Positions 875-52,910 of a stretch of 64,000 nucleotides of DNA are shown here, in pieces. The position numbers were made by a program, and so were the translations under genes. The notes under the pieces are model-generated. The model was not told the origin of the DNA, did no database searches, and was given only the letters and a program-made list of their open reading frames with translations. Source of the DNA: Halorubrum sp. BOL3-1 (GTDB lineage: Archaea > Halobacteriota > Halobacteria > Halobacteriales > Haloferacaceae); the NCBI RefSeq assembly GCF_004114375.1, contig NZ_CP034692.1, positions 1,798,001-1,862,000 of the forward strand. Direction: 5' to 3'. How positions within the stretch are numbered: the first letter of the stretch is position 1; every line of letters starts with the position of its first letter.

Positions 875-935
875 TGGCGGCTCGTAGGCCGGCCGGCCGT
901 TTATCGGCGTCGTTCGGCGGAGAACGCCGGAACGG

Positions 936-1391
936 TCACACTCGCCGGCGGCCGACGCGTCGGCCCTCGTCGGCGTCGTCGTCGACCGAGAACCCGACTC
1001 CCTCGTAGAAGCGGCTCAGTTCGGCGTCGAAGCCCGACGTAACGCGGTCGACGTGGGAGTCCGACTCTCCCCGGCGGACCGCGGCCGCGACGAGCGCCGA
1101 GCCGATGCCGCGGCCGCGCCGAGACCGCCGCACAGCGACGGCGTCGACGTGGAGTCGAGCGGGGTCGGGACGCGTCGCGACGAGCGCGCCGACGACCCCG
1201 CCGGTGCGCGTCGATCGGGCGACGAGCGCGTCGCCGGCCGCGATCCGGTCGGCGACGGTGTCGGCGTCGGTTTCGAGCATCGCGGCATCGAGGACCCGGA
1301 GGATATCGAGCCGGTCGTCGGGAGTCGCCGGCTCGACGGCGACATCGGCGGGCGAGTCGGTGTCGGCGGCGGGCGAGTCGTCGGCAGTCAC
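936..1391 (-). CDS. GNAT family N-acetyltransferase
   Basis: A 151-residue protein of the GCN5-related acetyltransferase fold. The acetyl-CoA pyrophosphate-binding motif A is clear (RRSRRGRGIGSALV, about residues 88-101), preceded by the beta-4 strand LHVDAVAVR and followed by the FYEGVGF segment typical of the C-terminal half. The acceptor substrate cannot be told from sequence. The ATG overlaps the stop of the upstream SAMP-like gene by 4 bp (ATGA), so the two are probably translationally coupled. This is notable because lysine acetylation and sampylation compete for lysines, but a functional link is only an inference. The arginine-rich C-terminus runs up to the stop. Confidence 0.85.
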   Translation of the reverse strand: MTADDSPAADTDSPADVAVEPATPDDRLDILRVLDAAMLETDADTVADRIAAGDALVARSTRTGGVVGALVATRPDPARLHVDAVAVRRSRRGRGIGSALVAAAVRRGESDSHVDRVTSGFDAELSRFYEGVGFSVDDDADEGRRVGRRRV

Positions 1392-1606
1392 AGTGTGAAC
1401 TCGCCCGAACCGCCCTTGATCAGTCGCAGAATTTTGACCGACTCGGCGTCGACGACGCCGTCGCCCGGCACCGGCGAGCCGTCGACCAGCGCCGACGCCT
1501 CCTGCGGGTGGTAGCCCGCCGCGCGGATCAGGTCGTCGTACGTCGCGTCGGCGGCGAGGCTGTACTCGTCGGTCCCCTCGCCGACGACCTCGACGGTCAC
1601 GTCCAT
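1388..1606 (-). CDS. samp2: Small archaeal modifier protein (SAMP2-like ubiquitin fold) with a six-residue C-terminal tail
   Basis: A 72-residue beta-grasp protein. The start (MDVTVEVVGE) and the end of the fold (VKILRLIKGG) match SAMP2-type proteins, which are attached to lysines or donate sulfur for tRNA thiolation after C-terminal adenylation by the E1-like UbaA. Known SAMPs end exactly at the diglycine. Here translation continues for SGEFTL before TGA, and those codons run into the start of the GNAT gene. The tail would have to be removed by a JAMM/MPN-type desampylase before activation, as for ubiquitin precursors. Alternatively this is a ThiS/MoaD-like homolog that is not conjugated. 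The reading was checked base by base at 1388-1420. Confidence 0.85.
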   Translation of the reverse strand: MDVTVEVVGEGTDEYSLAADATYDDLIRAAGYHPQEASALVDGSPVPGDGVVDAESVKILRLIKGGSGEFTL

Positions 1607-1649
1607 GGGCGCGGTAGCGGGTGGGCGGGCGTCAATCGCACGGTTCGGG

Positions 1650-1967
1650 TCACCGCGTCGACCGCTGTTCGCGGACGTTCCACTTCCAGAGGAGCCACAC
1701 CGTCGGGGCGGCGACGGCGGCGGTCACGAGCGCTCCGGGCCGGGGGACCGCGCCGGTCCACGCGTCGACGGCGAGGAGTCCGACTCCCGCGGCCGCGGCG
1801 ACGAGGACGGCCGCCGCGTCGCGGGCGAGTTCCGCCTCGCGCTCGGGCGGGAGGTCGCCGTCGTAGCCGGCGATCAGGCCGACCGCGCCGCGGCGGTGAA
1901 TGGTCCAGGCGAGCAGGAGGCAGAGCCCGGTCGGGAAGCCGAGCAGGAGGGTTTCGGCAACGGCCAT
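1650..1967 (-). CDS. Small haloarchaeal membrane protein, unknown function
   Basis: I do not recognise a named function. With the ATG at 1967 the product is 105 residues (MAVAETLLLGFPTGLC...). It has a first membrane segment at residues 3-20, a short acidic stretch containing DGDLPPEREAELARDAA, then two hydrophobic segments separated by a short loop and a basic end (WKWNVREQRSTR). The reading frame stays open for 56 further codons upstream, but those run through repetitive DNA and lack haloarchaeal codon preference, so the internal ATG is preferred. A TATA-like GGTATAAG about 25 bp upstream supports a leaderless start. The shape resembles DUF3784-type small membrane proteins, but only weakly. 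Confidence 0.65.
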   Translation of the reverse strand: MAVAETLLLGFPTGLCLLLAWTIHRRGAVGLIAGYDGDLPPEREAELARDAAAVLVAAAAGVGLLAVDAWTGAVPRPGALVTAAVAAPTVWLLWKWNVREQRSTR

Positions 1968-2051
1968 GTGTGCGGCTACGCCGCGCGATCGGTATAAGAA
2001 TGTCCGGCAGGAGCGGGTGGATCGGGTCGAGGAACCGTCTAATGAATCGGT

Positions 2052-2420
2052 GAGCGACACGGAGACCGCCGAAGCCCCAGCCGCTCGGCTGTGCGGTGCT
2101 GTCATCGGGTATAAATCGCCGACCGACACGAACACCGCCGAAGCCCCAGCCGCGAGGCGGGCGCACGCTCGCTGCGCTCCTCGTCACTCACTCCGTTCGC
2201 TCCTGCGGTGCTTGCTTCGCCTGCGCCCGCCTCGCGACTGCCCCTTCGAGTCCCACCCGGCACAGCAACCGCACCTCTCACCTCCCCAACCTCGTCGCTG
2301 GCGGTCTTCGCTTCGCTCGACCGCCAGCGACTCCCTCGCGCGGTGCTACTCGCGGGCCGATGGCCGGCTCGCAGGCACGCGCCGACTGCGTAGTTCTTTA
2401 TAAATGATCGTCGCCGTCGA
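2052..2420 (+). repeat. Structured dispersed repeat, copy A (full length)
   Basis: This intergenic stretch holds the most complete copy of an element that recurs at 24.1, 45.5 and 52.9 kb. It begins with two tandem units carrying GCCGAAGCCCCAGCCGC (2068 and 2137, 69 bp apart); a TATA-like GGTATAAAT lies between them. Hairpin 1 pairs 2151-2165 with 2222-2236 (15 perfect pairs). Next come the conserved CTGCCCCTTCGAGTCCCACC and CTCCCCAACCTCGTC. Hairpin 2 pairs 2295-2306 with 2319-2330 (12 perfect pairs). Then come CTCCCTCGCGCGG, a weaker GGCC hairpin, and a tail ending in TTTATAAATGATCGTCGCC. It has no convincing protein; the short ORFs across it lack a consistent frame between copies. It could be a structured RNA gene or a small non-autonomous mobile repeat. 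Confidence 0.75.
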
Positions 2421-2495
2421 TCGCGGTCGAATAAATACCGGATCGACGACGAAAAACTGCGGTGCGTGTCGCCGCCGTCGTTCGACACCGACCGC

Positions 2496-3983
2496 TCAGC
2501 CGTCCAACTCCTCGCGGAGCAGCCCGTTCACCTGCCCGGGGTCGGCGCTACCGCCGGTCGCCTGCATCACCTGCCCGACGAGGAAGTTGATCGCGCCCTC
2601 GTCGCCGTCGTGGTAGTCGCTCACGGCGTCGGGGTTCTCGTCGATAGCGGCCGCGACGGCGGTCTCGACCTCGCCGCTCTCGGCCTTCCCGAGTCCCTCG
2701 CGGTCGATGATCGTCCCGGGGTCGTCACCTTCGTCGAGCATCTCGCGGAGGACGATCTCCTCGGCGTTCTTGGTCGTCAGTTCCTCGGCGGCGACGAGCT
2801 CGATCAGACGCGTGAACTCGTCGAGTCGGCCTTCGACGTCCGTGATCGACATCTCGCGGTAGTTGAGCTCGCCGAGCAGGTTGTCGGCGACCCACGTCGC
2901 GGCCAGCTCGGGGTCGAACTCGCTCGCCACCTCCTCGAAGAAGTCCGCGACCGCCTTGGTGGAGGTGAGCTTGGAGGCCGCCTCGCGGTCGAGACCGTAC
3001 TCCTCGCGGAAGCGCTCACGGCGCGCGTCGGGGAGCTCCGGGATCGCGATCTGTTCTTTCCAGTCGGCCACCTCCAGGGCGGGGAGGTCGCCCTCGCGGA
3101 AGTAGCGGTAGTCCTTCTCGGCCTCCTTCGAGCGCATCCCGACGGTGACGCCGCGGTCCTCGTCCCAGTGGCGCGTCTCCTGTTCGATATCGCGGCCGCG
3201 ACGGAGCACGTTCTCCTGACGGGTGACCTCGTAGGCGAGCGCCTGCTCCGCGCCCTTGTGACTGGAGATGTTCTTCACCTCGGCGCGGTTCACGGCTTCG
3301 AGCGCCTCGTCGGCTATCGACCCGTCGGCGGCGACGTGCTCGGCGGGGACGAGGGAGACGTTGGCGTCGACGCGCAGGCTCCCGTCGCGGCCGGGGTCGA
3401 ACACGCCGAGGTACTCCAGCACCTCCTCCAGTTTCGCCAGGAACGCCCGCGTCTCGTCCGGCGACCGGAAGTCCGGCTCCGTGACGATCTCCATCAGCGG
3501 CGTGCCCGCGCGGTTGTAGTCCACCAGCGTGTGCGACGCCGACTCGATGGATCCGCCGGCGTGCTGGAGGCTACCGGGGTCCTCTTCGAGGTGCGCGCGA
3601 GTGATCCCGATGGTCCGCGGCTCGCCGTCGACGCGGACCTCCAGCTCGCCCGACTGACAGATCGGCGCGTCGTACTGGGTGAGCTGGAAGTTCTTCGGGA
3701 GGTCGGGGTAGTAGTAGTTCTTCCGGTGGAACGTGGTCGTCTCGGGGATGTCGGCGTCGATCGCCTTCCCGACCTTCACGGCGGCCTCGACGGCGGCCTC
3801 GTTGAGGACGGGGAGCGCGCCCGGCAGCCCGAGACAGGTCGGACACGTGCGCGTGTTCGGCTTCTCGTCGTCTGTCGGCTCCGTCGAGCAGCCGCAGAAG
3901 ATCTTCGTGTCGGTCTCGAGCTGGACGTGAACCTCCAGCCCGATCACGACTGTCCGGTCCGCCGTCGCGGCCTGCGTACTCAT
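2496..3983 (-). CDS. gatB: Aspartyl/glutamyl-tRNA amidotransferase subunit B
   Basis: A 495-residue GatB. It forms the glutamine-dependent amidotransferase GatCAB, which converts mischarged Glu-tRNA(Gln) and Asp-tRNA(Asn) to the correct aminoacyl-tRNAs in archaea lacking the direct synthetases. Visible signatures are VVIGLEVHVQL at the N-terminus, the zinc-site cysteines (FCGCS and CPTCLGLPG), FHRKNYYYPDLPKNFQ, and the LVDYNRAGTPLMEIVTEPD block. The C-terminal GatB/YqeY helical domain (about residues 340-495) ends with the tRNA-binding tail containing NFLVGQVMQATGG. Length and order are normal. gatA and gatC are not adjacent, as is usual in haloarchaea. A repeat element lies just beyond the 3' end. 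Confidence 0.97.
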   Translation of the reverse strand: MSTQAATADRTVVIGLEVHVQLETDTKIFCGCSTEPTDDEKPNTRTCPTCLGLPGALPVLNEAAVEAAVKVGKAIDADIPETTTFHRKNYYYPDLPKNFQLTQYDAPICQSGELEVRVDGEPRTIGITRAHLEEDPGSLQHAGGSIESASHTLVDYNRAGTPLMEIVTEPDFRSPDETRAFLAKLEEVLEYLGVFDPGRDGSLRVDANVSLVPAEHVAADGSIADEALEAVNRAEVKNISSHKGAEQALAYEVTRQENVLRRGRDIEQETRHWDEDRGVTVGMRSKEAEKDYRYFREGDLPALEVADWKEQIAIPELPDARRERFREEYGLDREAASKLTSTKAVADFFEEVASEFDPELAATWVADNLLGELNYREMSITDVEGRLDEFTRLIELVAAEELTTKNAEEIVLREMLDEGDDPGTIIDREGLGKAESGEVETAVAAAIDENPDAVSDYHDGDEGAINFLVGQVMQATGGSADPGQVNGLLREELDG

Positions 3984-4156
3984 TACCGGCCCGTTGTGAG
4001 CGGGCCACCTAAATCGTGTCGGGACAGTAGGGGGACCCGTCGCGTCGGCCTCACCGACGTGTCAAGCCGTCCTTCCCGGCGCACTCGCCGGCGACGGCCG
4101 CGGGCGACGCCGCGCGTTCCGACCCGTTTATTGCGGCCGGGCAACCTCTCAGAGAC

Positions 4157-4705
4157 ATGACCGACGACGAGCGCCGATCGGAACTGATCGCCGCGCTGCG
4201 GGCGGCCGACGCCGTCCGGTTCGGTGAGTTCGAGCTGTCGCACGGCGGGACGAGCGACTACTACGTCGACAAGTACCTGTTCGAGACCGACCCGGACGCG
4301 CTGACGCTCGTCGCGGAGGCGTTCGCGGACCGGCTCGCGGACGCGGACGCGAAGCTCGCGGGCGTCGCGTTGGGCGCGGTCCCACTCGTGGCGGTGACCG
4401 CAGCCGAACTCGGCCGCCCGTACGTCATCGCGCGCAAGCAGGCGAAGGAGTACGGCACGGGCAACCGGATCGAGGGGGGGCTCGACGCGGGCGAGGAGGT
4501 GGTCGTGATCGAGGACATCGCCACGACCGGACAGTCCGCGGTCGACGCCGTCGAGGCGCTCCGCGAGGCGGGCGCGACGGTGGACCGCGTACTGATCGTC
4601 GTCGACCGCGAGGAGGGCGCGCGGGAGCTGCTCGCGGAGCACGACGTCGAGCTGGAGTCGCTGCTGACCGCGACGGAGCTGCTCGCGGAGCGCGACGAGG
4701 AGTAG
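4157..4705 (+). CDS. pyrE: Orotate phosphoribosyltransferase
   Basis: A 182-residue PyrE that joins orotate to PRPP to give OMP in UMP synthesis. The PRPP-binding motif [13 protein letters not shown] is near residues 115-127. The orotate-side element [11 protein letters not shown] is near residue 28, and [16 protein letters not shown] is the flexible catalytic loop with its lysines. Length is typical for archaeal OPRT. The gene is monocistronic; it diverges from gatB with a 173-bp gap and converges on the MoxR gene. Loss of this gene is known to give uracil auxotrophy in haloarchaea. Confidence 0.95.
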
Positions 4706-4726
4706 GAAGTAGTTTTCCCGCCGTCC

Positions 4727-5689
4727 TCACGCCTCGGGCGCGTCGACCGTCGGCACCGCGACGCGGTCGAGGACATCGGCTATCACGTCGCGCTCGTCGA
4801 CGGCGTTGACGGCCGCGTCCGGTGTCAACACGAGCCGGTGGGCGAGCGTCGGCTCCGCGACGCGCTTCACGTCGTCCGGCGTGACGAACGCCCGGCCGGC
4901 GACGACCGCCGCCGCCCGCGCCGTCTCGAAGAGGCGCTGGGTGCCGCGGGGGGAGACGCCGGCCTCGACGCGGCGGTCCTCGCGGGTCGCCCGCGCGAGC
5001 GACGCCGCGTAACGCAGGAGGTCGTCGTCGACGCGGACTGACTCGGGCACCTCTCGCAGCGCCGCCACGGCGTCGGGGTCCAACACGCGGTCGACGGTGG
5101 GCGACTGCTCGACGCGACCGGCGCGCCGTCGGAGAAGCTCCAGCTCGCCGTCCTCGTCGGGGTAGCCGATAGAGGTCTTGATCGTGAACCGGTCGAGTTG
5201 GGCCTCCGGCAGCGGGAACGCGCCCTCGCTCTCGACGGGGTTCTGCGTCGCGATCACGTAGAAGGGCGAGGGCAGGTCGTGGGTCTCGCCGTCGACGGTC
5301 ACCTGTCCCTCCTCCATCGCCTCCAAGAGGGCCGCCTGCGTCTTCGGCGGGGCGCGGTTGATCTCGTCCGCCAAGACGACGTTCGCGAAGATCGGTCCGG
5401 GCGAAAACGAGAAGGAGCCGTCGCGCTCGTCGAACACGTTGGTTCCGGTGACGTCGGCCGGCAGCAGGTCGGGGGTGAACTGGACCCGCGAGAACTCCAG
5501 GCCGAGCGCGGTCGCAAACGAGCGCGCCGAGAGGGTCTTTCCGGTCCCGGGCACGTCTTCGAGGAGGACGTGGCCGCGGGCGAGGATACCGAGGGTGACG
5601 CGTTCCAAGAACTCGCGGTCCGCGACGACCGCGCCGCCGACCTCCTCGACGACGCGGGCGCAGGCGTCGGCGGCTTCGGGGACGTCCAT
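4727..5689 (-). CDS. MoxR-family AAA+ ATPase
   Basis: A 320-residue AAA+ ATPase of the MoxR/RavA group, which act as chaperones inserting cofactors or assembling complexes with von Willebrand (VWA) partners. Walker A is GHVLLEDVPGTGKT (residues about 38-51), Walker B is VVLADEINRAPPKTQ, sensor 1 is YVIATQNP, and the arginine-finger region includes EAQLDRFTIK. The C-terminal AAA-lid-2 helices complete the fold. MoxR genes are often followed by DUF58 and VWA genes. Here the next features downstream are pyrE (convergent) and upstream a tRNA, so the partner is not adjacent and the client cannot be named. Confidence 0.9.
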   Translation of the reverse strand: MDVPEAADACARVVEEVGGAVVADREFLERVTLGILARGHVLLEDVPGTGKTLSARSFATALGLEFSRVQFTPDLLPADVTGTNVFDERDGSFSFSPGPIFANVVLADEINRAPPKTQAALLEAMEEGQVTVDGETHDLPSPFYVIATQNPVESEGAFPLPEAQLDRFTIKTSIGYPDEDGELELLRRRAGRVEQSPTVDRVLDPDAVAALREVPESVRVDDDLLRYAASLARATREDRRVEAGVSPRGTQRLFETARAAAVVAGRAFVTPDDVKRVAEPTLAHRLVLTPDAAVNAVDERDVIADVLDRVAVPTVDAPEA

Positions 5690-5822
5690 ACCGACCGCAC
5701 GGGAGCCGGGCCGAAAAGCGTTGCCGGGACCCGAAACGGCGAGGCGTTCGACTGAGGGTCGGAGACCGCGCCGCGGGCGCGATCGAAACGCATAACAGCG
5801 GAACCGGTCAAGTTCGAATCGA

Positions 5823-5907
5823 GCCGAGGTAGCCTAGCCTGGCCAAGGCGGTAGATTCGAAATCTACTGTCCATTCGGACACCGGAGTTCAAATCTCCGC
5901 CTCGGCG
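5823..5907 (+). tRNA. tRNA-Ser (anticodon CGA)
   Basis: A full cloverleaf can be folded by eye. The acceptor stem is GCCGAGG (5823-5829) with CCTCGGC (5900-5906) and discriminator G5907. The anticodon stem-loop GTAGA-TTCGAAA-TCTAC has CGA as the anticodon. A long variable arm (TGTCC-ATT-CGGACA region) is the hallmark of class II tRNAs and fits serine. The T-arm is CGGAG-TTCAAAT-CTCCG. No intron is seen and CCA is not encoded. It reads UCG codons, common in this GC-rich genome. A box-A-like ACGCATAAC lies about 35 bp upstream. Confidence 0.95.
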
Positions 5908-5977
5908 CTTCTCGCAGTCTCGTTCGGTGAGCGACGGCGCCGTCGCGTCCGACGGCGAAACGCGCCGAGCGGTCGCG

Positions 5978-6601
5978 CTACGCGATCAGGGCGGCCGCGA
6001 GGAACATTCCGGACGCGGCCGCCGGCGGGATCGTGAGGTTGTCGTCGACGGCCACGCCGCGTATCAGCGGCGGGAGTCCGTCGGCGGCCGCCGCGGGGAC
6101 GGCGCCCGCGAGCGCGACGATCACGCCGGGGTCGGGACCGAACTCGGGGATCGCGTACGGGACGGCGATCCCGAAGCAGACGAAGACCATCGCCGCGACC
6201 ACGGGGAGCCGCTTCGGCTCCGTCGCCGCGTTCTCTCCGAGACCGCCGCTTATGGGGTCACCGACGGAGAGCATCCACATCGCGGGCACGGCGAACACCG
6301 GCGCGAAGACGAGGGCGGTCGCCGCCATGCCCACCTGATACAGCGCGTAGCCCGCGATCCCGTCGGCCTCGTACTCGCGGACGAGCGCGTCGTACAGGGG
6401 GTCGAGCGGGCCGACCGAGTCGGAGAGGCGCAGCGCTTCGAGCAGGGCCGCGACCGCGACGCTACCCACCAACAGCCGGCCGGTGGTCTCCCAGGAGATC
6501 CAGCCGAGCAGGAACGGGACCGGGTACAGCGTGCCGCTCGCGTGGACCAGGCGCCGCTCGAACTCCACGCGCTCGCGCCACGCCGCCGCCGGGAGGGTCA
6601 C
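5978..6601 (-). CDS. Dolichol kinase-like / CTP-transferase family membrane protein
   Basis: A 207-residue polytopic membrane protein with about six hydrophobic segments. The N-terminal EFERRLVHASGTLYPVPF resembles the conserved start of the SEC59/dolichol kinase and VTE5/6 group. The middle loop MWMLSVGDPISGGLG carries the D-x-x(S/A) signature that binds CTP in this family. The likely role is CTP-dependent phosphorylation of dolichol for lipid-linked sugar carriers used in N-glycosylation. Phytol or geranylgeraniol kinase is a possible alternative. It follows glyS with only 4 bp between them, so it is the last gene of a CBS-protein/glyS operon. Confidence 0.75.
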   Translation of the reverse strand: MTLPAAAWRERVEFERRLVHASGTLYPVPFLLGWISWETTGRLLVGSVAVAALLEALRLSDSVGPLDPLYDALVREYEADGIAGYALYQVGMAATALVFAPVFAVPAMWMLSVGDPISGGLGENAATEPKRLPVVAAMVFVCFGIAVPYAIPEFGPDPGVIVALAGAVPAAAADGLPPLIRGVAVDDNLTIPPAAASGMFLAAALIA

Positions 6602-6605
6602 GCCT

Positions 6606-8408
6606 TCAGTTCCCCGCGGTCTCGACGTCGGTGTCGACCGCGTCGTAGCGGTCCGCGACCGACTCGAACGGTTCGCCCCCGCGCAGCGCGGTCAGTTCGC
6701 CCGCGAGGTCCGCGACCGGAATTCGGATCTGCGCCGCGGAGTCGCGCTCGCGGAGCGTGGCCGTGTCCGGACCGTCGCCCTCGACCCCGTCGCGGTCGAC
6801 GGTGACGCAGAACGGGGTCCCGACCTCGTCCTGTCGGCGGTAGCGCCGGCCGATCGAGCCGGAGTCGTCGTACGCGACCGCCAGCCCGGCCGCCCGGAGG
6901 TCGGCCGCGACCTCGTCGGCGAGCGCGGTGAGCCGGTCGTCGTTCGTCACCAGCGGGAAGACGGCGGCGTCCTGCGGCGCGACCTCGGGTTCTAAGGAGA
7001 GGTACGTCCGCTCCTCGCCGTCGACCTCGTCCCGGTTGTAGGCGTGCGCGAGGACCGTCTGGACGGTCCGGCCGACGCCGAACGACGGCTCGACCACGTG
7101 CGGAGTGATGTGCTCGCCGTTCTCCGTGACCTCCTCGACCGAGAAGTTCGCCACGTCGACGTCGACCTCGCGGGCCTCCGCGTCGTCGCCGTCACCGGTC
7201 TCGACGGTGACGGTCTCGCCGTCGAACGCGCCGGGGTCGCGCTCGGCGAGGGTTTCGAGCGCGTCCGCGACCGCGGCGGCGTCGCCGCCGAACTCGGGAC
7301 CGAGGACCGACATGTCGGGGTCGACCGTCGCTCGCTCGACCGTCTTCGGCTCGTCGTACCGCTTGAACACGGTGAAGGAGTCGTCGCCGTGTTCGTCGTG
7401 TTTCGAGAGGTCGTAGTCGCCGCGGTACGCGAAGCCGGCGATCTCGATCCAGTCGCCGTCGACCTCGCTCTCGGCGTCCCAGCAGTCGGCCGCGTAGTGG
7501 GCGCGCTCGCCCGCGAGGTGCTGGCGGAACCGGAAGCGGTCGAGGTCGACGCCGACGCGCTCGTACCACTCCTGGGCGACGCCGAGGTAGTAGCCGACCC
7601 ACGGGGAGCCGATGACGCCCTCGTCGACCGCCGCGCCGACCGTCGTCTCCAGGTACTCGCCGTCGGCGGCGTCCTGTTCGGTCGCGGGGTACAGCCGCAC
7701 GTCGACGTCGCGGACGCGGTCGAGCGGCGGCTCGTCGTCCTCGGGGTCGATGAACTGCTCTAACTCGGCCTGCGTGAACTCCCGCAGGCGGAGGAGGCCG
7801 CCGCGCGGCGAGATCTCGTTGCGGTAGGCCGGCCCGATCTGGGTGATCCCGAACGGGAGGTTCCCCCGGGCGTACTCCTTGAGGCGCGGGAACTCAACGA
7901 AGATGCCCTGCGCGGTCTCCGGGCGGAGGTAGCCGGGCTGGGCGTCGCCGGGACCGATGTCGGTCGCGAACATGAGGTTGAACGCCTCGACCGGCTCGCC
8001 GGCGAGCGCGGTGCCGCAGGACGGACAGGCGATCTCGTTGTCGGCGATGAGCTCCGCGACCTCCTCGCCGGGCAGCGCCTCGGCGTCCTCGATCTCCGTG
8101 ACGGCCTCGACGAGGTGGTCGGCGCGGTGGGACTCGCCGCACTCGGGGCACTCGACGAGCATGTCGTCGAACCCCTCCAGATGGCCGGAGGCCTCGAAGA
8201 CCGGCTCGGGCATCACCGTCGGCGCCTCGATCTCGCGGTTCCCCTCGCGGATCGTGAACCGGTCGCGCCAGGCGTCCTCGACGTTGCGCTTCAGCGCCGC
8301 CCCCTGCGGCCCGAACGTGTAGAAGCCGGCGGTGCCGCCGTACGCGCCGTTGGCGCCGAAAAAGAACCCCCGGCGCTTCGCGAGTTCGACGAGCGCGTCC
8401 GCGGCCAT
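6606..8408 (-). CDS. glyS: Glycyl-tRNA synthetase (alpha2 class II type)
   Basis: A 600-residue synthetase charging tRNA-Gly. It opens with ELAKRRGFFFGANGAYGG, the usual archaeal GlyRS start. An inserted zinc-ribbon-like pair of CPECG and CPSCG motifs lies at about residues 85-145. Class II motif 2 (AYRNEISPRGGLLRLREF) and the motif 3 arginine region (PSFGVGRTVQTVL) are intact. The anticodon-binding domain occupies the last ~110 residues. The gene sits in an operon: the upstream CBS gene ends one base before its start and a dolichol-kinase-like gene follows by 4 bp. Confidence 0.97.
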   Translation of the reverse strand: MAADALVELAKRRGFFFGANGAYGGTAGFYTFGPQGAALKRNVEDAWRDRFTIREGNREIEAPTVMPEPVFEASGHLEGFDDMLVECPECGESHRADHLVEAVTEIEDAEALPGEEVAELIADNEIACPSCGTALAGEPVEAFNLMFATDIGPGDAQPGYLRPETAQGIFVEFPRLKEYARGNLPFGITQIGPAYRNEISPRGGLLRLREFTQAELEQFIDPEDDEPPLDRVRDVDVRLYPATEQDAADGEYLETTVGAAVDEGVIGSPWVGYYLGVAQEWYERVGVDLDRFRFRQHLAGERAHYAADCWDAESEVDGDWIEIAGFAYRGDYDLSKHDEHGDDSFTVFKRYDEPKTVERATVDPDMSVLGPEFGGDAAAVADALETLAERDPGAFDGETVTVETGDGDDAEAREVDVDVANFSVEEVTENGEHITPHVVEPSFGVGRTVQTVLAHAYNRDEVDGEERTYLSLEPEVAPQDAAVFPLVTNDDRLTALADEVAADLRAAGLAVAYDDSGSIGRRYRRQDEVGTPFCVTVDRDGVEGDGPDTATLRERDSAAQIRIPVADLAGELTALRGGEPFESVADRYDAVDTDVETAGN

Positions 8409-9257
8409 CTACAGCCCCTCCAGCAGGTCCACGTCGCGGACGACGCCCTCGATCTCGGTGCCCGAGACGAGCGGGACCTGCTCGATGTCGTTCGTGATCA
8501 GCTCCTGGGCGACCTCCTTGGCCGTCCGCGTGGCGTTGACGGTGATCAGGTCGGCGGTCATGAAGCGGCGGACCGCCTCCGCTGGGATCTCGACGTTTCG
8601 GGTCGGGAGGTAGCGCGCGCCGGTCGCTTTGATCCCCTCCCACGACCACTCGGAGTCCTCCTCCGCGATCGAGTCGCCCGTGCTCGCCTCGCCCTCGACG
8701 ACGCGGGCGACTTCGAGGATGTCGACCTCGGTGAGCATCCCGGCGATCGCGGCGTCGTCCGCGAGGACGACCGCGTACGGGACCCCCGAGAGCGCTATCT
8801 CCCGCTCGGCGACCGGGAGCGGCGTCTCGGTGTGGGTCGCGTTGACCTCTCGCGTCGCCAACTCGCCGACGCGGGTCTCGCCGTCGACCTCGCCGCGAGC
8901 GATGGCCCGCACCACGTCCGTCACCGTGAGGATGCCGACGAGTTCGTCGCCGTCGACCACGGGGAGGCGGCGCGACTCCTCCGCGACCATCGTCCGGGCG
9001 GCGTCGACGATGCCGTCGTCGGCTCCGACCGTCGGGACCTCGCGCAACAGCAGCGCGAGCTGGTCCTCGTCGGGCTGGTCGATCAGGTCGTCACGCGTGA
9101 CGAGCCCGCGGTACACCTCGTCGCCGCCGACGTCCTTCACGACCGGCACCGACGAGAAGCCGTGGTCCTGGATGTACTCCAACACGTCGTTCCGGCTCCC
9201 GGGGATCTCGACGACGACGAGCTCCGAGCGCGGCGTCATGGCGTCTGCGACGTTCAT
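8409..9257 (-). CDS. Protein with four CBS domains
   Basis: A 282-residue soluble protein built from four CBS motifs, i.e. two Bateman modules that bind adenosine nucleotides and sense energy or SAM status. The repeats start near residues 3 (MTPRSELVVVE), 75 (VPTVGADDGIVDAA), 130 and 225 (MTADLITVNATRTAKEV). Each ends in a typical V.D.L or T..D motif. A linker containing SEWSWEGIKATGARYLPTRN separates repeats 3 and 4. There is no catalytic domain, so the job is regulatory or as a partner. Its stop abuts the glyS start exactly, suggesting coupling to translation capacity or to glycine charging, which is inference. Confidence 0.9.
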   Translation of the reverse strand: MNVADAMTPRSELVVVEIPGSRNDVLEYIQDHGFSSVPVVKDVGGDEVYRGLVTRDDLIDQPDEDQLALLLREVPTVGADDGIVDAARTMVAEESRRLPVVDGDELVGILTVTDVVRAIARGEVDGETRVGELATREVNATHTETPLPVAEREIALSGVPYAVVLADDAAIAGMLTEVDILEVARVVEGEASTGDSIAEEDSEWSWEGIKATGARYLPTRNVEIPAEAVRRFMTADLITVNATRTAKEVAQELITNDIEQVPLVSGTEIEGVVRDVDLLEGL

Positions 9258-9545
9258 GCTCGTCTTTCAGCGTGACACCTCTTGTATACTGCGAAGGTGC
9301 GCGGACCCGGGCCGTCGTCACGCGGAGGCGAGTGGCGCGCAAAGTCGGGCCGTCGTCACGAGGAGACGAAGCATTGCGACGGCCGCTGAGCGTCCCGAGA
9401 GGACTCGCGAGCCGATGAGAAACCCGACACGTTTCTGCGGATCGTCGTCCGCGGAGCGGCTTTTCGGGAAAACTGTCGGCCGCGAGTCCCCGGGATCTCC
9501 GATTCGCCGGGAGGTCCCGTCGGGGTTCGCAACTATTATATATAC

Positions 9546-9560
9546 TGTGAACTATTCACA
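9546..9560. promoter_or_regulatory. Perfect inverted repeat between TATA box and start codon (candidate operator)
   Basis: TGTGAACTATTCACA has 6-bp perfect arms around CTA. It lies 3 nt before the ATG at 9564 and just after the AT-rich TATTATATATAC (9533-9544). With a leaderless start the palindrome would cover the transcription start, the classic place for an archaeal repressor site. The surrounding 9258-9545 gap (about 290 bp) shows no gene or other clear structure. Confidence 0.55.
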
Positions 9561-9563
9561 ACC

Positions 9564-9785
9564 ATGTCACGGAGTTCCACTCCTTGGGACGACCCGGACC
9601 CCGACCGCCGCCGGACGGCGCTGCCGACAGATCCGGCGCTCGACGCTCCCGACGCGCCGGACGTGATGGCGTCCGTCGACTCCTCGTCGTCGCGACCGGA
9701 GCTCGTGATCGCAGACGTCTCGCGGGAGAACGCGTGGGTGACGGTCGACGAGACCGACGCGACCGTCCTCGAAGAGTGGTGTTGA
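9564..9785 (+). CDS. Small acidic haloarchaeal protein, unknown function
   Basis: A 73-residue acidic protein. The C-terminal half (LVIADVSRENAWVTVDETD) resembles short conserved haloarchaeal proteins of unknown function that end near a Trp and a Cys (EEWC). No catalytic motif or membrane segment is present. The ATG is preceded by a TATA-like AT stretch about 25 bp upstream and no Shine-Dalgarno, so the transcript is likely leaderless and controlled through the palindrome at 9546. I do not recognise a function; a regulator or stress-induced small protein is possible. Confidence 0.6.
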   Translation: MSRSSTPWDDPDPDRRRTALPTDPALDAPDAPDVMASVDSSSSRPELVIADVSRENAWVTVDETDATVLEEWC

Positions 9786-9865
9786 ACGCGTCCCGACCGT
9801 GAGCGCCGCCCGCGTTCGTTTCCTTTTCCGAGACGGCTCTCGACCTTCCGGAAACCACTCTCGAC

Positions 9866-10762
9866 CTACCGGAGCCCCCGCTCCGCTTCCCACCCGCGGA
9901 TCAGCGAGTCGACCGTCCAGCAGGTCGGCACCGACACGCCGTGCCGGTCCGCCCGGTCGGTGACGGCGCCGTAGATCGCGTCGACCTCGGTGCGGCGGCC
10001 GTTCGCGACATCCTCACGCATCGACGACCGGTTGGCGGCGGTGTCGGCGGCGACGCGCTCGACGGCGTCGACCGCGCGTTCGTCGGTCAGGGCGATCTCG
10101 GCCGCGCGAGCGACCCGGGCCGTCTCGCGGGCGGCCTCGCGGGCGACCCCGCCCCCGGGACCGTCGAGCGTCGGTCCGTTCTCGGTCCGCGCCAGCGCCG
10201 AGGGGCCGTTGATCCCGGCGTTGACCGCGAGCTTCTCGAAGCGGCGCACCGGCATGTCCTCGGCGACGACCGTCTCGATACCGGCCGCGTCGAAGGCGGT
10301 CCCGACGCGCGCGGCCTGCGGGCTGGCACCGCCGGAGAGGGCCCCGACGGCCACCTCGCCGACGCCGGTACAGGTGACCCGGCCCGGCTCCGCGAACCGG
10401 GCTCCGTAGCTCGCGGTGCCGGCGAGGACGGTCGCGTCGAGCGCGGCGACCAGCCCCTCCTCGGTGAGTCCGTTCTGGAGCGAGCAGACCGCCCCGTACT
10501 CGCCGGTCGCGAGCGCTCGCGCGGCCGCGTCGGTGTCGTACGCCTTGGTCGTGACCACGGCGAGGTCGGCAGCGCGGTGCGTCCCGTCGGTGAGCGCGCG
10601 CGGCGCAACGCGAACGTCCGCCTCGCCGTCGATCCGGAGTCCGTCCTCGCGAATCTGCCGCATGTGCGGGTCGCGGCCGACGAGCGTCACGTCGTGCTCG
10701 CGCGCCAACAGCCCGCCCACGAGGCTCCCGAGCGCGCCGGCGCCGTAGACGAGCACCTCCAT
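9866..10762 (-). CDS. panE: 2-dehydropantoate 2-reductase (ketopantoate reductase family)
   Basis: A 298-residue NADPH-dependent reductase. The N-terminal Rossmann loop VYGAGALGSLVGGLLA (residues 4-19) is the ApbA/PanE signature. VTTKAYDT is near residue 73, the catalytic lysine lies in RRFEKLAVNAGINGPSAL (about 176), and the C-terminal domain carries SSMREDVANGRRTEVDAIYG, which binds ketopantoate. It would supply pantoate for coenzyme A. Archaea make CoA by a route with pantoate kinase, and PanE-type reductases are normal there. It lies 73 bp downstream of the threonine synthase gene on the same strand and may be cotranscribed. Confidence 0.9.
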   Translation of the reverse strand: MEVLVYGAGALGSLVGGLLAREHDVTLVGRDPHMRQIREDGLRIDGEADVRVAPRALTDGTHRAADLAVVTTKAYDTDAAARALATGEYGAVCSLQNGLTEEGLVAALDATVLAGTASYGARFAEPGRVTCTGVGEVAVGALSGGASPQAARVGTAFDAAGIETVVAEDMPVRRFEKLAVNAGINGPSALARTENGPTLDGPGGGVAREAARETARVARAAEIALTDERAVDAVERVAADTAANRSSMREDVANGRRTEVDAIYGAVTDRADRHGVSVPTCWTVDSLIRGWEAERGLR

Positions 10763-51424: not shown

Positions 51425-51691
51425 GCGGACAGTAGGGGCGCGATCGGCTTGACGATGGGGGTCGAAGACGAGAACGTTCGGCCTCGCGGCTCGGGTCGAG
51501 ACCGCCGACGAAGTCTCGGAGGGGAGCGAATCGATCGCCGCGGTCGGGGGAGGGCCGAATGGGCCGGCCGACAGAGAACCGGCCCGCGTCGTTCGGAGAT
51601 AGCGCGCGTCTGCGGGGAACCTCGTCGGCGACCGAAGCGAGAGCCCCCGATCTCATAGATATTACGCAGACAAAGACAAAAGTAATAACAG

Positions 51692-51722
51692 TGTGATCAC
51701 AACCGTCAATATCGTCACGATA
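51692..51722. promoter_or_regulatory. Two inverted repeats upstream of the DUF6293 regulator gene
   Basis: TGTGATCACA (51692-51701) is a perfect 10-bp palindrome, and TATCGTCACGATA (51710-51722) has 5-bp perfect arms around TCA. They lie between the AT-rich GACAAAAGTAATAACAG (51674-51690) and the GTG start at 51734, so they probably overlap the transcription start. The rest of the 51425-51733 gap (about 310 bp) contains only a GGGCCGG/CCGGCCC hairpin near 51560 and no gene. Confidence 0.45.
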
Positions 51723-51733
51723 CACGGTGAGAC

Positions 51734-52492
51734 GTGAGCGACTTCGACGTTCCGAAGCGCGTCCACGTCGTCCCGCTGGGATACGAGTTAGACCGGATCG
51801 TCCGGCCGGTCGTCGACGGCGACGCCGACGAGGTCCTCTTCCTGGAGCCGAACCTCGATCGGGAGGGCGTTGATCGACCGTCGTACCACGGCGCCGTGCG
51901 CGAGCGGATCCACGAGGAGGAGATCTCGACCGAGACCGTCGAGTGCGACATCTTCGACCTCTTCAGTTCGCTGGGGACGATCGCCGAGATCGCGGACGAG
52001 CTCCGGGATCACAACGTCTACGTGAACCTCGCGTCGGGGTCGAAGGTGACCGCGATCGGTGGGATGATCGCCTGTATGGTCACCGGCGCGATCCCGTATT
52101 ACGTCCGCGCGGAGGAGTACGCGGGCGGCGAGGAGCGACCGGTGGCCTCGGGCGCGAGGGCCCCGGAGACGCTCCCAAAGTACCCGATCGAGGAGCCGAA
52201 GCCCGAACGCGTCGCGGTCCTCGCACACGTCGAACGGGAACAGCCCGTCACGAAGGGGGAGCTCATCGACTACGGCCGCCGGGAGGGGCTCCCCTTCGTC
52301 GAGCGCTACGATACCGAGGGGGTCCGGAACCCGGAGCGTGGATACTACCGGCGGCTCAACGCCCACGTCGTCGACCCCTTGACCGACCGCGGGTTCGTCG
52401 AAGTCGAGGAACACTCCAAGTACCAGTACGTCTCCGTCACCGAGAGCGGGTCGAACCACCTCCGGGCGTTCCGCTACCTGATCGGGGATTGA
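51734..52492 (+). CDS. DUF6293 / HFX_2341-type CARF-like regulator with winged HTH
   Basis: A 252-residue protein (GTG start). The N-terminal ~130 residues form a Rossmann-like domain of the CARF group: VHVVPLGYELDRIVRPVV at the start and the nucleotide-pocket motif VYVNLASGSKVTAIGGMIACM, where the SGS(K) loop would bind a cyclic oligonucleotide. The C-terminal wHTH begins PERVAVLAHVEREQPVTKGELIDYGRR and ends LNAHVVDPLTDRGFVEVEEHSKYQYVSVTESG. CARF regulators respond to cyclic oligoadenylate in CRISPR type III systems, but this subgroup also occurs outside CRISPR, and no cas gene or array is in the window. Ligand unknown. Confidence 0.82.
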   Translation: MSDFDVPKRVHVVPLGYELDRIVRPVVDGDADEVLFLEPNLDREGVDRPSYHGAVRERIHEEEISTETVECDIFDLFSSLGTIAEIADELRDHNVYVNLASGSKVTAIGGMIACMVTGAIPYYVRAEEYAGGEERPVASGARAPETLPKYPIEEPKPERVAVLAHVEREQPVTKGELIDYGRREGLPFVERYDTEGVRNPERGYYRRLNAHVVDPLTDRGFVEVEEHSKYQYVSVTESGSNHLRAFRYLIGD

Positions 52493-52614: not shown

Positions 52615-52788
52615 TCAGTCGTCGGCCGGGGCGCGCGGCTCCGCCGGGGGCTCGGTCTCTTCCCGGTCGTCAGCGGGTTCGTCGACCGGGTCGACGTCGG
52701 GGGCCTCGTCGTCGAACTCGTCCGCCTCGTCGGGCCGGTGACGCGCCTCGATCGCCGACGTGCGCGCCTCGTCGTAGTGGTGACACAT
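52615..52788 (-). CDS. Small Asp/Glu-rich haloarchaeal protein
   Basis: A 57-residue protein from the ATG at 52788 (MCHHYDEARTSAIEARHRPDEADEF). The N-terminus MCHHYDE with Cys-His-His could bind a metal; the C-terminal half is low-complexity acidic/Pro (VDPVDEPADDREE). Short proteins with a similar start occur in haloarchaea, to my memory. A TTAATAGTTG-like AT-rich stretch lies just upstream. Function is unknown. Confidence 0.55.
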   Translation of the reverse strand: MCHHYDEARTSAIEARHRPDEADEFDDEAPDVDPVDEPADDREETEPPAEPRAPADD

Positions 52789-52910
52789 GGCAACTATTAA
52801 CACGGTCTTACGGCTCCTAAAAGTTGCGGCGATACTGGGGATTTCTGGCCGCTCAGACCGTCAGAACGTTCGTCCGCTCGCGTGTCCTAGTTGACCTGAT
52901 AATCACCCTC

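What the first reader, a model, noticed from the sequence alone, without database searches (positions are those of the whole stretch)
51692..52492. Stand-alone CARF-like regulator with its own palindromes
The NLASGSKV loop and Rossmann-like fold fit CARF domains, which sense cyclic oligonucleotides, fused to a winged HTH. There is no CRISPR-cas gene in the window, so it may respond to a separate cyclic-nucleotide signal in antiviral or stress control. Two inverted repeats precede it.
Basis: partly seen in the sequence, partly recalled or inferred. Interest (0 to 1): 0.5.

Follow-up and report, generated by a model that had tools for sequence, protein, structure and literature searches.

The report
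CARF-type DNA-binding regulator in haloarchaea
This gene encodes a salt-loving archaeon's DNA-binding switch with a pocket of the kind that senses ring-shaped nucleotide alarm signals; it is one of a known family, but several of its relatives sit right beside antiviral gene sets, which suggests what the family may control.

Summary
ORF 51734-52492 (+, GTG start, 252 aa) is a CARF domain fused to a winged helix (Pfam HFX_2341_N 3e-40, DUF6293_C 6e-30; PADLOC CARF3--CARF 6e-92; model pLDDT 89.6; structural neighbours are CARF proteins). It is not the HFX_2341/crr orthologue, which lies elsewhere in the same genome with a third paralogue. Both palindromes exist. TGTGATCACA (51692-51701) lies just upstream of a TATA-like box 28 nt before the start codon and is conserved in near relatives; the second (51710-51722) is little conserved. 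The 10-mer occurs once more in the genome, inside a long ORF, so autoregulation is the best guess. The genome is not CRISPR-free: a type I-B interference set with a 26-repeat array lies on another contig, without Cas1. The gene does not track Cas1, and one Cas10 palm model found nothing in 195 genomes of the order. Beyond the question: some relatives sit beside a CBASS cyclase with Cap15, Bil-like genes, E1/E2-like genes or a partly Mokosh-like helicase; the first and last are the window clade's sister lineage in the tree. About half of the plasmid relatives examined show no such neighbour. Ligand, dimer and targets are untested.

The parts
51734..52492 (+). CDS, 252 aa, CARF-wHTH (DUF6293 / HFX_2341-like family) regulator, GTG start
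51758..52120 (+). CARF domain (residues 9-129)
   Evidence: Pfam PF19810 3.1e-40 and PF22662 Csa3_N 1.8e-6; listed structural neighbours are CARF proteins, a label recalled for entries whose title does not say so
51773..51796 (+). pocket loop 1, residues 14-21 PLGYELDR; Gly16, Tyr/Phe17, Glu18 and Arg21 in 48 of 49 rows (the 49th is a gap)
   Evidence: compared by eye with Csa3 motif 1 as given in PMC8844856 (passages)
52025..52045 (+). pocket loop 2, residues 98-104 NLASGSK; Asn98 and Gly102 in 49 of 49 rows, Lys104 in 45 (Arg 1, Thr 3)
   Evidence: CARF [DN]X[ST]XXX[RK] signature as given in PMC4012209 (passages)
52172..52471 (+). winged-helix DNA-binding domain (residues 147-246)
   Evidence: Pfam PF22665 6.1e-30
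51692..51701 (.). palindrome 1, TGTGATCACA, candidate operator
   Evidence: two places in the genome, the other inside a 729-aa ORF
51706..51712 (+). TATA-like box TCAATAT, first base 28 nt before the start codon; fits a leaderless transcript
   Evidence: TCAATA or TCAATG in the Halorubrum and Halobellus rows
51710..51722 (.). palindrome 2, TATCGT-C-ACGATA; overlaps the TATA-like box, little conserved, probably not functional as a palindrome

Best explanation
The gene encodes a one-component transcription regulator. By analogy with Csa3 and MM_0565 it should form a dimer whose two CARF domains make one pocket for a cyclic or oligomeric nucleotide, while the two winged helices bind a palindrome. 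The likeliest first target is its own promoter: the dimer would sit on TGTGATCACA, directly upstream of the TATA-like box and about where TFB should bind, and repress its own leaderless transcript until ligand changes its grip. Other targets would be controlled in trans through other or weaker sites. Since no Cas10 palm domain was found in the sampled genomes, the signal, if it is a nucleotide, should come from another enzyme: a CD-NTase of a resident or incoming defence cassette, or the diadenylate cyclase that this genome has. Shown here: the domains, the predicted fold, conserved loop residues, the conserved promoter block, its rarity in the genome, no co-occurrence with Cas1. Inferred: dimer, ligand, autoregulation, repression, defence role.
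For: Domains and fold. Conserved pocket loops. Promoter block conserved. At the same place orthologues of other genera carry TGT-N2-6-ACA: 19 of 31 near relatives and 8 of 14 hand-picked representatives, with 0 of 1000 shuffle sets reaching either count (pattern chosen after seeing the sequences, rows related). Family upstream stretches are richer in inverted repeats than upstream stretches of neighbouring ORFs: 12 of 50 against 23 of 246 at p <= 0.05, Fisher 0.007. Private site: no other place in the genome within 3 mismatches of the 22-mer over palindrome and TATA. No tie to CRISPR: close orthologues with Cas1 5 of 18, other genomes 60 of 177, Fisher p = 0.79; Cas10 palm2 model 0 of 195. DAC-domain protein present. 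Relatives beside defence genes; the pair beside CBASS and the MkoA-like helicase is sister to the window clade (SH-aLRT 90).
Against: No ligand, dimer or DNA-binding datum for this protein. The inverted repeat upstream of the window gene is not significant alone (p = 0.126). In rows L007-L011 the palindrome is eroded although the ACAA or ATAA and TCAATA parts stay, so part of the conservation may be plain promoter. No neighbour of this gene or of its ten nearest relatives was recognised as a defence gene, though among these only the window's neighbours and those of L007 were profile-scanned. Csa3's second stacking Phe is Arg21 here. The +2 Ser/Thr of the CARF signature is Ala100. The studied paralogue acts mainly on metabolic and transport genes (PMC11434293), so a defence role need not follow.
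Confidence: 0.5

Rival explanations
1. A global housekeeping regulator like its paralogue crr/HFX_2341, repressing nutrient transport and other metabolic genes, perhaps in response to cyclic di-AMP from a DacZ-like enzyme, with no antiviral role.
For: On the 3.37-Mb contig; its clade of window plus ten loci lies in two chromosomal arrangements without a recognised defence gene; paralogue data and the c-di-AMP suggestion in PMC11434293; DAC protein in the genome.
Against: Patchy: within its own genus 3 of 11 sampled genomes give no match and one only a distant one, unlike a core regulator. The sister lineage sits beside defence genes. No second good copy of the promoter site in the genome.
Confidence: 0.3
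2. A trans-acting regulator of the type I-B cas operon of the same cell, a Csa3 counterpart.
For: Weak Csa3 similarity (PF22662 28.4 bits, just over its cut-off 27); type I-B interference genes and array on C4.
Against: Below the NCBIfam Csa3 cut-off (28.7 of 60.2 bits). No copy of the 22-mer promoter site within 3 mismatches anywhere else in the genome. No co-occurrence with Cas1.
Confidence: 0.1
3. A CARF protein that has lost its ligand and works as a plain autorepressor.
For: No fixed partner gene and no Cas10 palm hit; three rows of the family have Thr for the pocket Lys.
Against: The pocket loops are unchanged in this protein's own clade: NLASGSK in all but one row (NLAAGSK) and PLGYE-DR in all eleven.
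Confidence: 0.1

Closest known systems
HFX_2341 / crr of Haloferax mediterranei (NCBIfam NF051475)
   Same: Same Pfam N-terminal family PF19810, CARF plus winged helix, haloarchaea, no genomic tie to cas genes
   Different: Different paralogue: 13.5 bits against a cut-off of 500. The orthologue is elsewhere in the same genome, 571.8 bits
PADLOC CARF3--CARF, PDLC01847
   Same: Near full-length match, 305.6 bits, so the group was already catalogued as CARF
   Different: Catalogue entry only; no description given there
Csa3a of Saccharolobus solfataricus (2WTE, 6W11, 6WXQ)
   Same: CARF plus wHTH, loop 2 Gly and basic residue, loop 1 Gly-aromatic; [quoted passage not shown]
   Different: By eye, Phe14 is Arg21, Arg98 is Lys104, Asn11 is Glu18; not beside cas genes; that paper found Csa3a binding to CAPPa nonspecific and cA4-independent in vitro (abstract)
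Ring nucleases Sso1393 / Sis0811
   Same: CARF and long alignments: 192-193 residues, Z 12.5, rmsd 4.5-4.6
   Different: Ser12 of Sis0811 falls on Glu18 by offset; the GxS/T motif is absent, so ring cleavage by that route is not expected
MM_0565 of Methanosarcina mazei
   Same: CARF-wHTH regulator with leaderless transcript, dimer (PMC7465815 section 3.1)
   Different: Beside a type I-B cas operon
CapW / BrxR (WYL-domain regulators)
   Same: Regulators beside phage-defence cassettes of many kinds, often with inverted repeats upstream (PMC9122601 passages; PMC9122588 start of abstract)
   Different: WYL, not CARF. The likeness holds for relatives of the window gene, not for the window locus

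Membership tests
CARF superfamily | CARF fold | tested here: met
   The 50 listed structural matches, Z 10.4-14.9, are CARF proteins. Many entry titles do not name CARF (Csm6, Can2, Cam1, ring nucleases); that label is recalled
CARF superfamily | [DN]X[ST]XXX[RK] after strand 4 | tested here: inconclusive
   N98-L-A100-S-G-S-K104: Asn and Lys fit, Ala stands for Ser/Thr; 12 of 49 rows have S/T there
CARF superfamily | binds cyclic oligonucleotide | not testable with these tools
   needs biochemistry
Pfam PF19810 + PF22665 (HFX_2341-like / DUF6293) | over the gathering scores | tested here: met
   137.8 bits of 30 and 104.1 of 27
NCBIfam NF051475 (HFX_2341 equivalog) | over the curated cut-off | tested here: not met
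   13.5 bits of 500
Csa3 (TIGR01884) | over the curated cut-off | tested here: not met
   28.7 bits of 60.2
Csa3 | cA4-binding motif 1 with both Phe residues | tested here: not met
   G16-Y17-E18-L19-D20-R21; second Phe is Arg, aligned by eye
Csa3 | gene beside cas genes | tested here: not met
   neighbours: a SAM methyltransferase (Pfam), an unidentified 62-aa ORF, an alcohol dehydrogenase
Ring nucleases (GxS/T type) | GxS/T in loop 1 | tested here: not met
   G16-Y17-E18; Glu in 48 of 49 rows, one gap
Autoregulated repressors | binds own promoter palindrome | not testable with these tools
   site conserved and found at no other promoter by the searches made; binding untested

The most novel reading that the evidence does not exclude
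DUF6293 CARF-wHTH proteins are a family of exchangeable archaeal regulators of defence cassettes, the CARF counterpart of CapW/BrxR, reading cyclic nucleotides that come from CD-NTases and not from type III CRISPR. In two genomes of one genus (Halalkalicoccus, inferred for the unnamed one) 85.5%-identical regulators with matching upstream DNA face different payloads, a CBASS cyclase with Cap15 in one and a partly Mokosh-like helicase in the other. The window gene would be a chromosomal, cassette-free member that watches for such signals and acts in trans.
Probability: 0.27. Interest if true: 0.7.

Novelty: new member of a known kind. Interest (0 to 1): 0.42.

Why it matters
CARF regulators are mostly read as servants of CRISPR. 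This one lives in an order where a Cas10 palm model found nothing in 195 genomes, so it and its paralogues make a testable question: what nucleotide do they sense? The CBASS-linked sister in genome G065 gives a cyclase-regulator pair that could be assayed directly.

Tried and rejected
Cas-linked role: tested by Cas1 and Cas10 searches over 195 genomes, no association. Cas10 was sought only with the Pfam palm2 model; it rang in 5 of 14 control genomes, E. coli among them, and type I-D Cas10d or very divergent forms may be missed. The Halocatena plasmid stretch carries a type I-D operon with a csa3 gene.

Regulon search: TGTGATCACA and the 22-mer with 3 mismatches found no other promoter. Looser patterns were not tried.

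Palindrome 2 as an operator: set aside for lack of conservation.

Virus-borne copies: the pattern scans of viral contigs found none for alignment A2 nor for the E2 protein of L029.

Sequence search of the PDB: no convincing hit; only fold comparison shows the kinship.

Defence association as a family-wide rule: not supported as a rule. One search gave 23 plasmid records; 20 were opened, two (H1, H3) were seen as loci L030 and L032, and H18 was not opened. Within three genes either side, 10 of 22 (H1-H5, H7, H11, H14, H20, H23) have a helicase, nuclease, AAA, restriction, ThiF, E2 or JAB gene, against 28 of 134 genes in four control stretches of such plasmids (one-sided Fisher p = 0.017). I counted both by eye and chose the stretches; TnpB, PIN, ParA and 'ATPase domain' proteins were not counted. 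28 counts every Cas protein, 27 if only the named words count. 22 (or 21) of them come from the one stretch with a CRISPR operon; 6 come from one other stretch and the remaining two give none. H11 and H14 rest on product names alone or on weak profile matches. 12 of 22 have no such neighbour.

Dropped or faulty rows: one search dropped rows with identical 75-nt upstream; one search left out L032, L053 and L058. Searches used some loci on the wrong strand, so the L035 row of alignment A1 is wrong; one search used only the window, L004, L005 and L006 rows of that alignment. The 62-aa ORF at 52615-52803 was scanned in a wrong frame, so it has no valid Pfam result. The shuffle and Fisher tests treat related rows as independent.

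Full report
What is there. The ORF at 51734-52492 (+) has 252 codons and a GTG start where its close relatives start with ATG. Pfam finds HFX_2341_N over residues 9-129 and the DUF6293 winged helix over 147-246, both far over the cut-offs, and Csa3_N just over its own. PADLOC files it as CARF3--CARF at 6e-92. An AlphaFold model from an alignment of 49 rows has pLDDT 89.6. The 50 listed structural neighbours are CARF proteins: Can2, Csm6, Cam1, the ring nucleases Sis0811 and Sso1393, Csa3 and others; where the entry title does not say CARF, the label is recalled. Sequence search of the PDB gave nothing convincing.

Pocket. Csa3a holds cA4 by a Gly-Phe-(Asn/Asp) loop and a Gly-x-Arg loop (PMC8699464 section 3.5; PMC8844856 passages). 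The window protein has Gly16-Tyr17-Glu18 and Gly102-Ser103-Lys104. In 49 rows, Gly16 and Glu18 stand in 48 (one gap), Gly102 in 49, Lys104 in 45. The second stacking Phe of Csa3a is Arg21 here, and the catalytic Ser position of Sis0811 is Glu18. I aligned these by motif and offset, not by superposition. So a nucleotide pocket is likely, cA4 is not assured, and ring cleavage by the known route is unlikely.

Promoter. TGTGATCACA (51692-51701) is followed by a TATA-like TCAATAT at 51706, 28 nt before the start codon, which fits a leaderless transcript (that such transcripts are common in haloarchaea is recalled). The block 51685-51712 is identical at 22 of 28 positions in four loci of the window's clade, against 65 of 146 elsewhere in 51560-51733. 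More distant orthologues carry other TGT...ACA forms at the same place. The exact 10-mer occurs at two places in the genome, the other inside a 729-aa ORF, and the 22-mer within 3 mismatches only here. Palindrome 2 is little conserved. Against this: in rows L007-L011 the palindrome is worn while ACAA (ATAA in L008) and TCAATA remain, and the inverted repeat of the window itself is not significant alone (p = 0.126).

Family and genome. The genome (3.67 Mb, 4 contigs) has three PF19810 proteins: this one, a paralogue 32% identical over residues 71-250, and the HFX_2341/crr orthologue. crr was studied in Haloferax mediterranei: deletion changed many metabolic genes, over-expression lowered cas transcripts, and no ligand is known (PMC11434293, parts 1 and 2 of 5 read). 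In 195 genomes of the order 111 match the window protein at E <= 1e-3, paralogues included. Cas1 is in 65; the Cas10 palm2 model hits none, while it rings in 5 of 14 control genomes. Close orthologues have Cas1 in 5 of 18 genomes, the others in 60 of 177. The host genome lacks Cas1 but holds Cas3, Cas5b, Cas7b, Cas8b, a Cas6 piece and a 26-repeat array on contig C4.

Neighbours. Around the window gene and its ten nearest relatives I recognised no defence gene, and the surroundings fall into different arrangements; only neighbours in the window and in L007 were profile-scanned. Elsewhere in the family it can be different. In genome G065 the regulator (49% identical) faces, 122 nt away, a 111-aa ORF, a CBASS cyclase (PADLOC Cyclase 1.7e-87, SMODS over its cut-off) and a Cap15 receptor protein. 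On Halalkalicoccus jeotgali plasmid 1 a regulator 85.5% identical to that one, with DNA similarity reaching about 220 nt upstream, faces a helicase whose C-terminal half matches MkoA (4e-72). A Natrinema zhouii plasmid has BilB-, BilC- and BilD-like genes opposite (1e-5, 1.8e-10, 1.2e-29). In L027-L030, L032 and a Halorubrum plasmid an E2-like protein lies opposite, in four of the six with a ThiF protein; L027, L029 and L086 were profile-scanned, the rest placed by sequence cluster, and the JAB part is below Pfam's cut-off. Others adjoin SngC/BrxC-D-like, type IIG-like or LmuB/Rad50-like genes. The tree joins the Halalkalicoccus pair to the window clade with SH-aLRT 90, under the 95 mark. The keyword count, 10 of 22 against 28 of 134, is a weak test, and 12 of 22 show nothing of the kind.

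Literature. The word DUF6293 is in one held paper. Searches for CARF with CBASS, wHTH or CapW, and for haloarchaea with CBASS, listed no paper whose title or abstract start describes a CARF regulator of CBASS or Bil; I saw 15 of 69, 9 of 9 and 4 of 4 listings. The 2020 CARF classification paper is not held. So I can say only that I did not find it in print in that library.

Verdict. A real CARF-wHTH regulator, a new member of a known family, probably autoregulated. The signal and the target genes are open. The defence link is a lead from relatives.

Noticed in passing
L105 (G065:C7:12000-28000), regulator 8533-9354, cyclase 7177-8088, Cap15-like 6513-7199: CARF-wHTH gene divergent from a CBASS cyclase and Cap15 effector; a GmrSD-like gene further on.
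   Followed up: partly
L087 3099-6732 (Natrinema zhouii plasmid): CARF-wHTH gene divergent from BilB/BilC/BilD-like genes and an 86-aa ORF without a match that may be the ubiquitin-like protein.
   Followed up: partly
L027-L030, L032, L086: CARF-wHTH gene divergent from an E2-like protein, in four of these six with a ThiF protein too; three of the six (L030, L032, L086) are plasmid records.
   Followed up: partly
L084 (G000:C4:1-20000), 915-10420: Type I-B interference genes and a 26-repeat array without Cas1 in the genome; the Cas6 ORF matches only positions 157-256 of a 257-position model.
   Followed up: partly
G000:C3:2231830-2232636 and G000:C3:2808908-2809849: Two more HFX_2341_N proteins in the same genome, the second being the crr orthologue.
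   Followed up: partly
window 52615-52803 (-): Small acidic 62-aa ORF behind the gene; its cluster has three gene calls, one of them in L004. Not validly profile-scanned.
   Followed up: no
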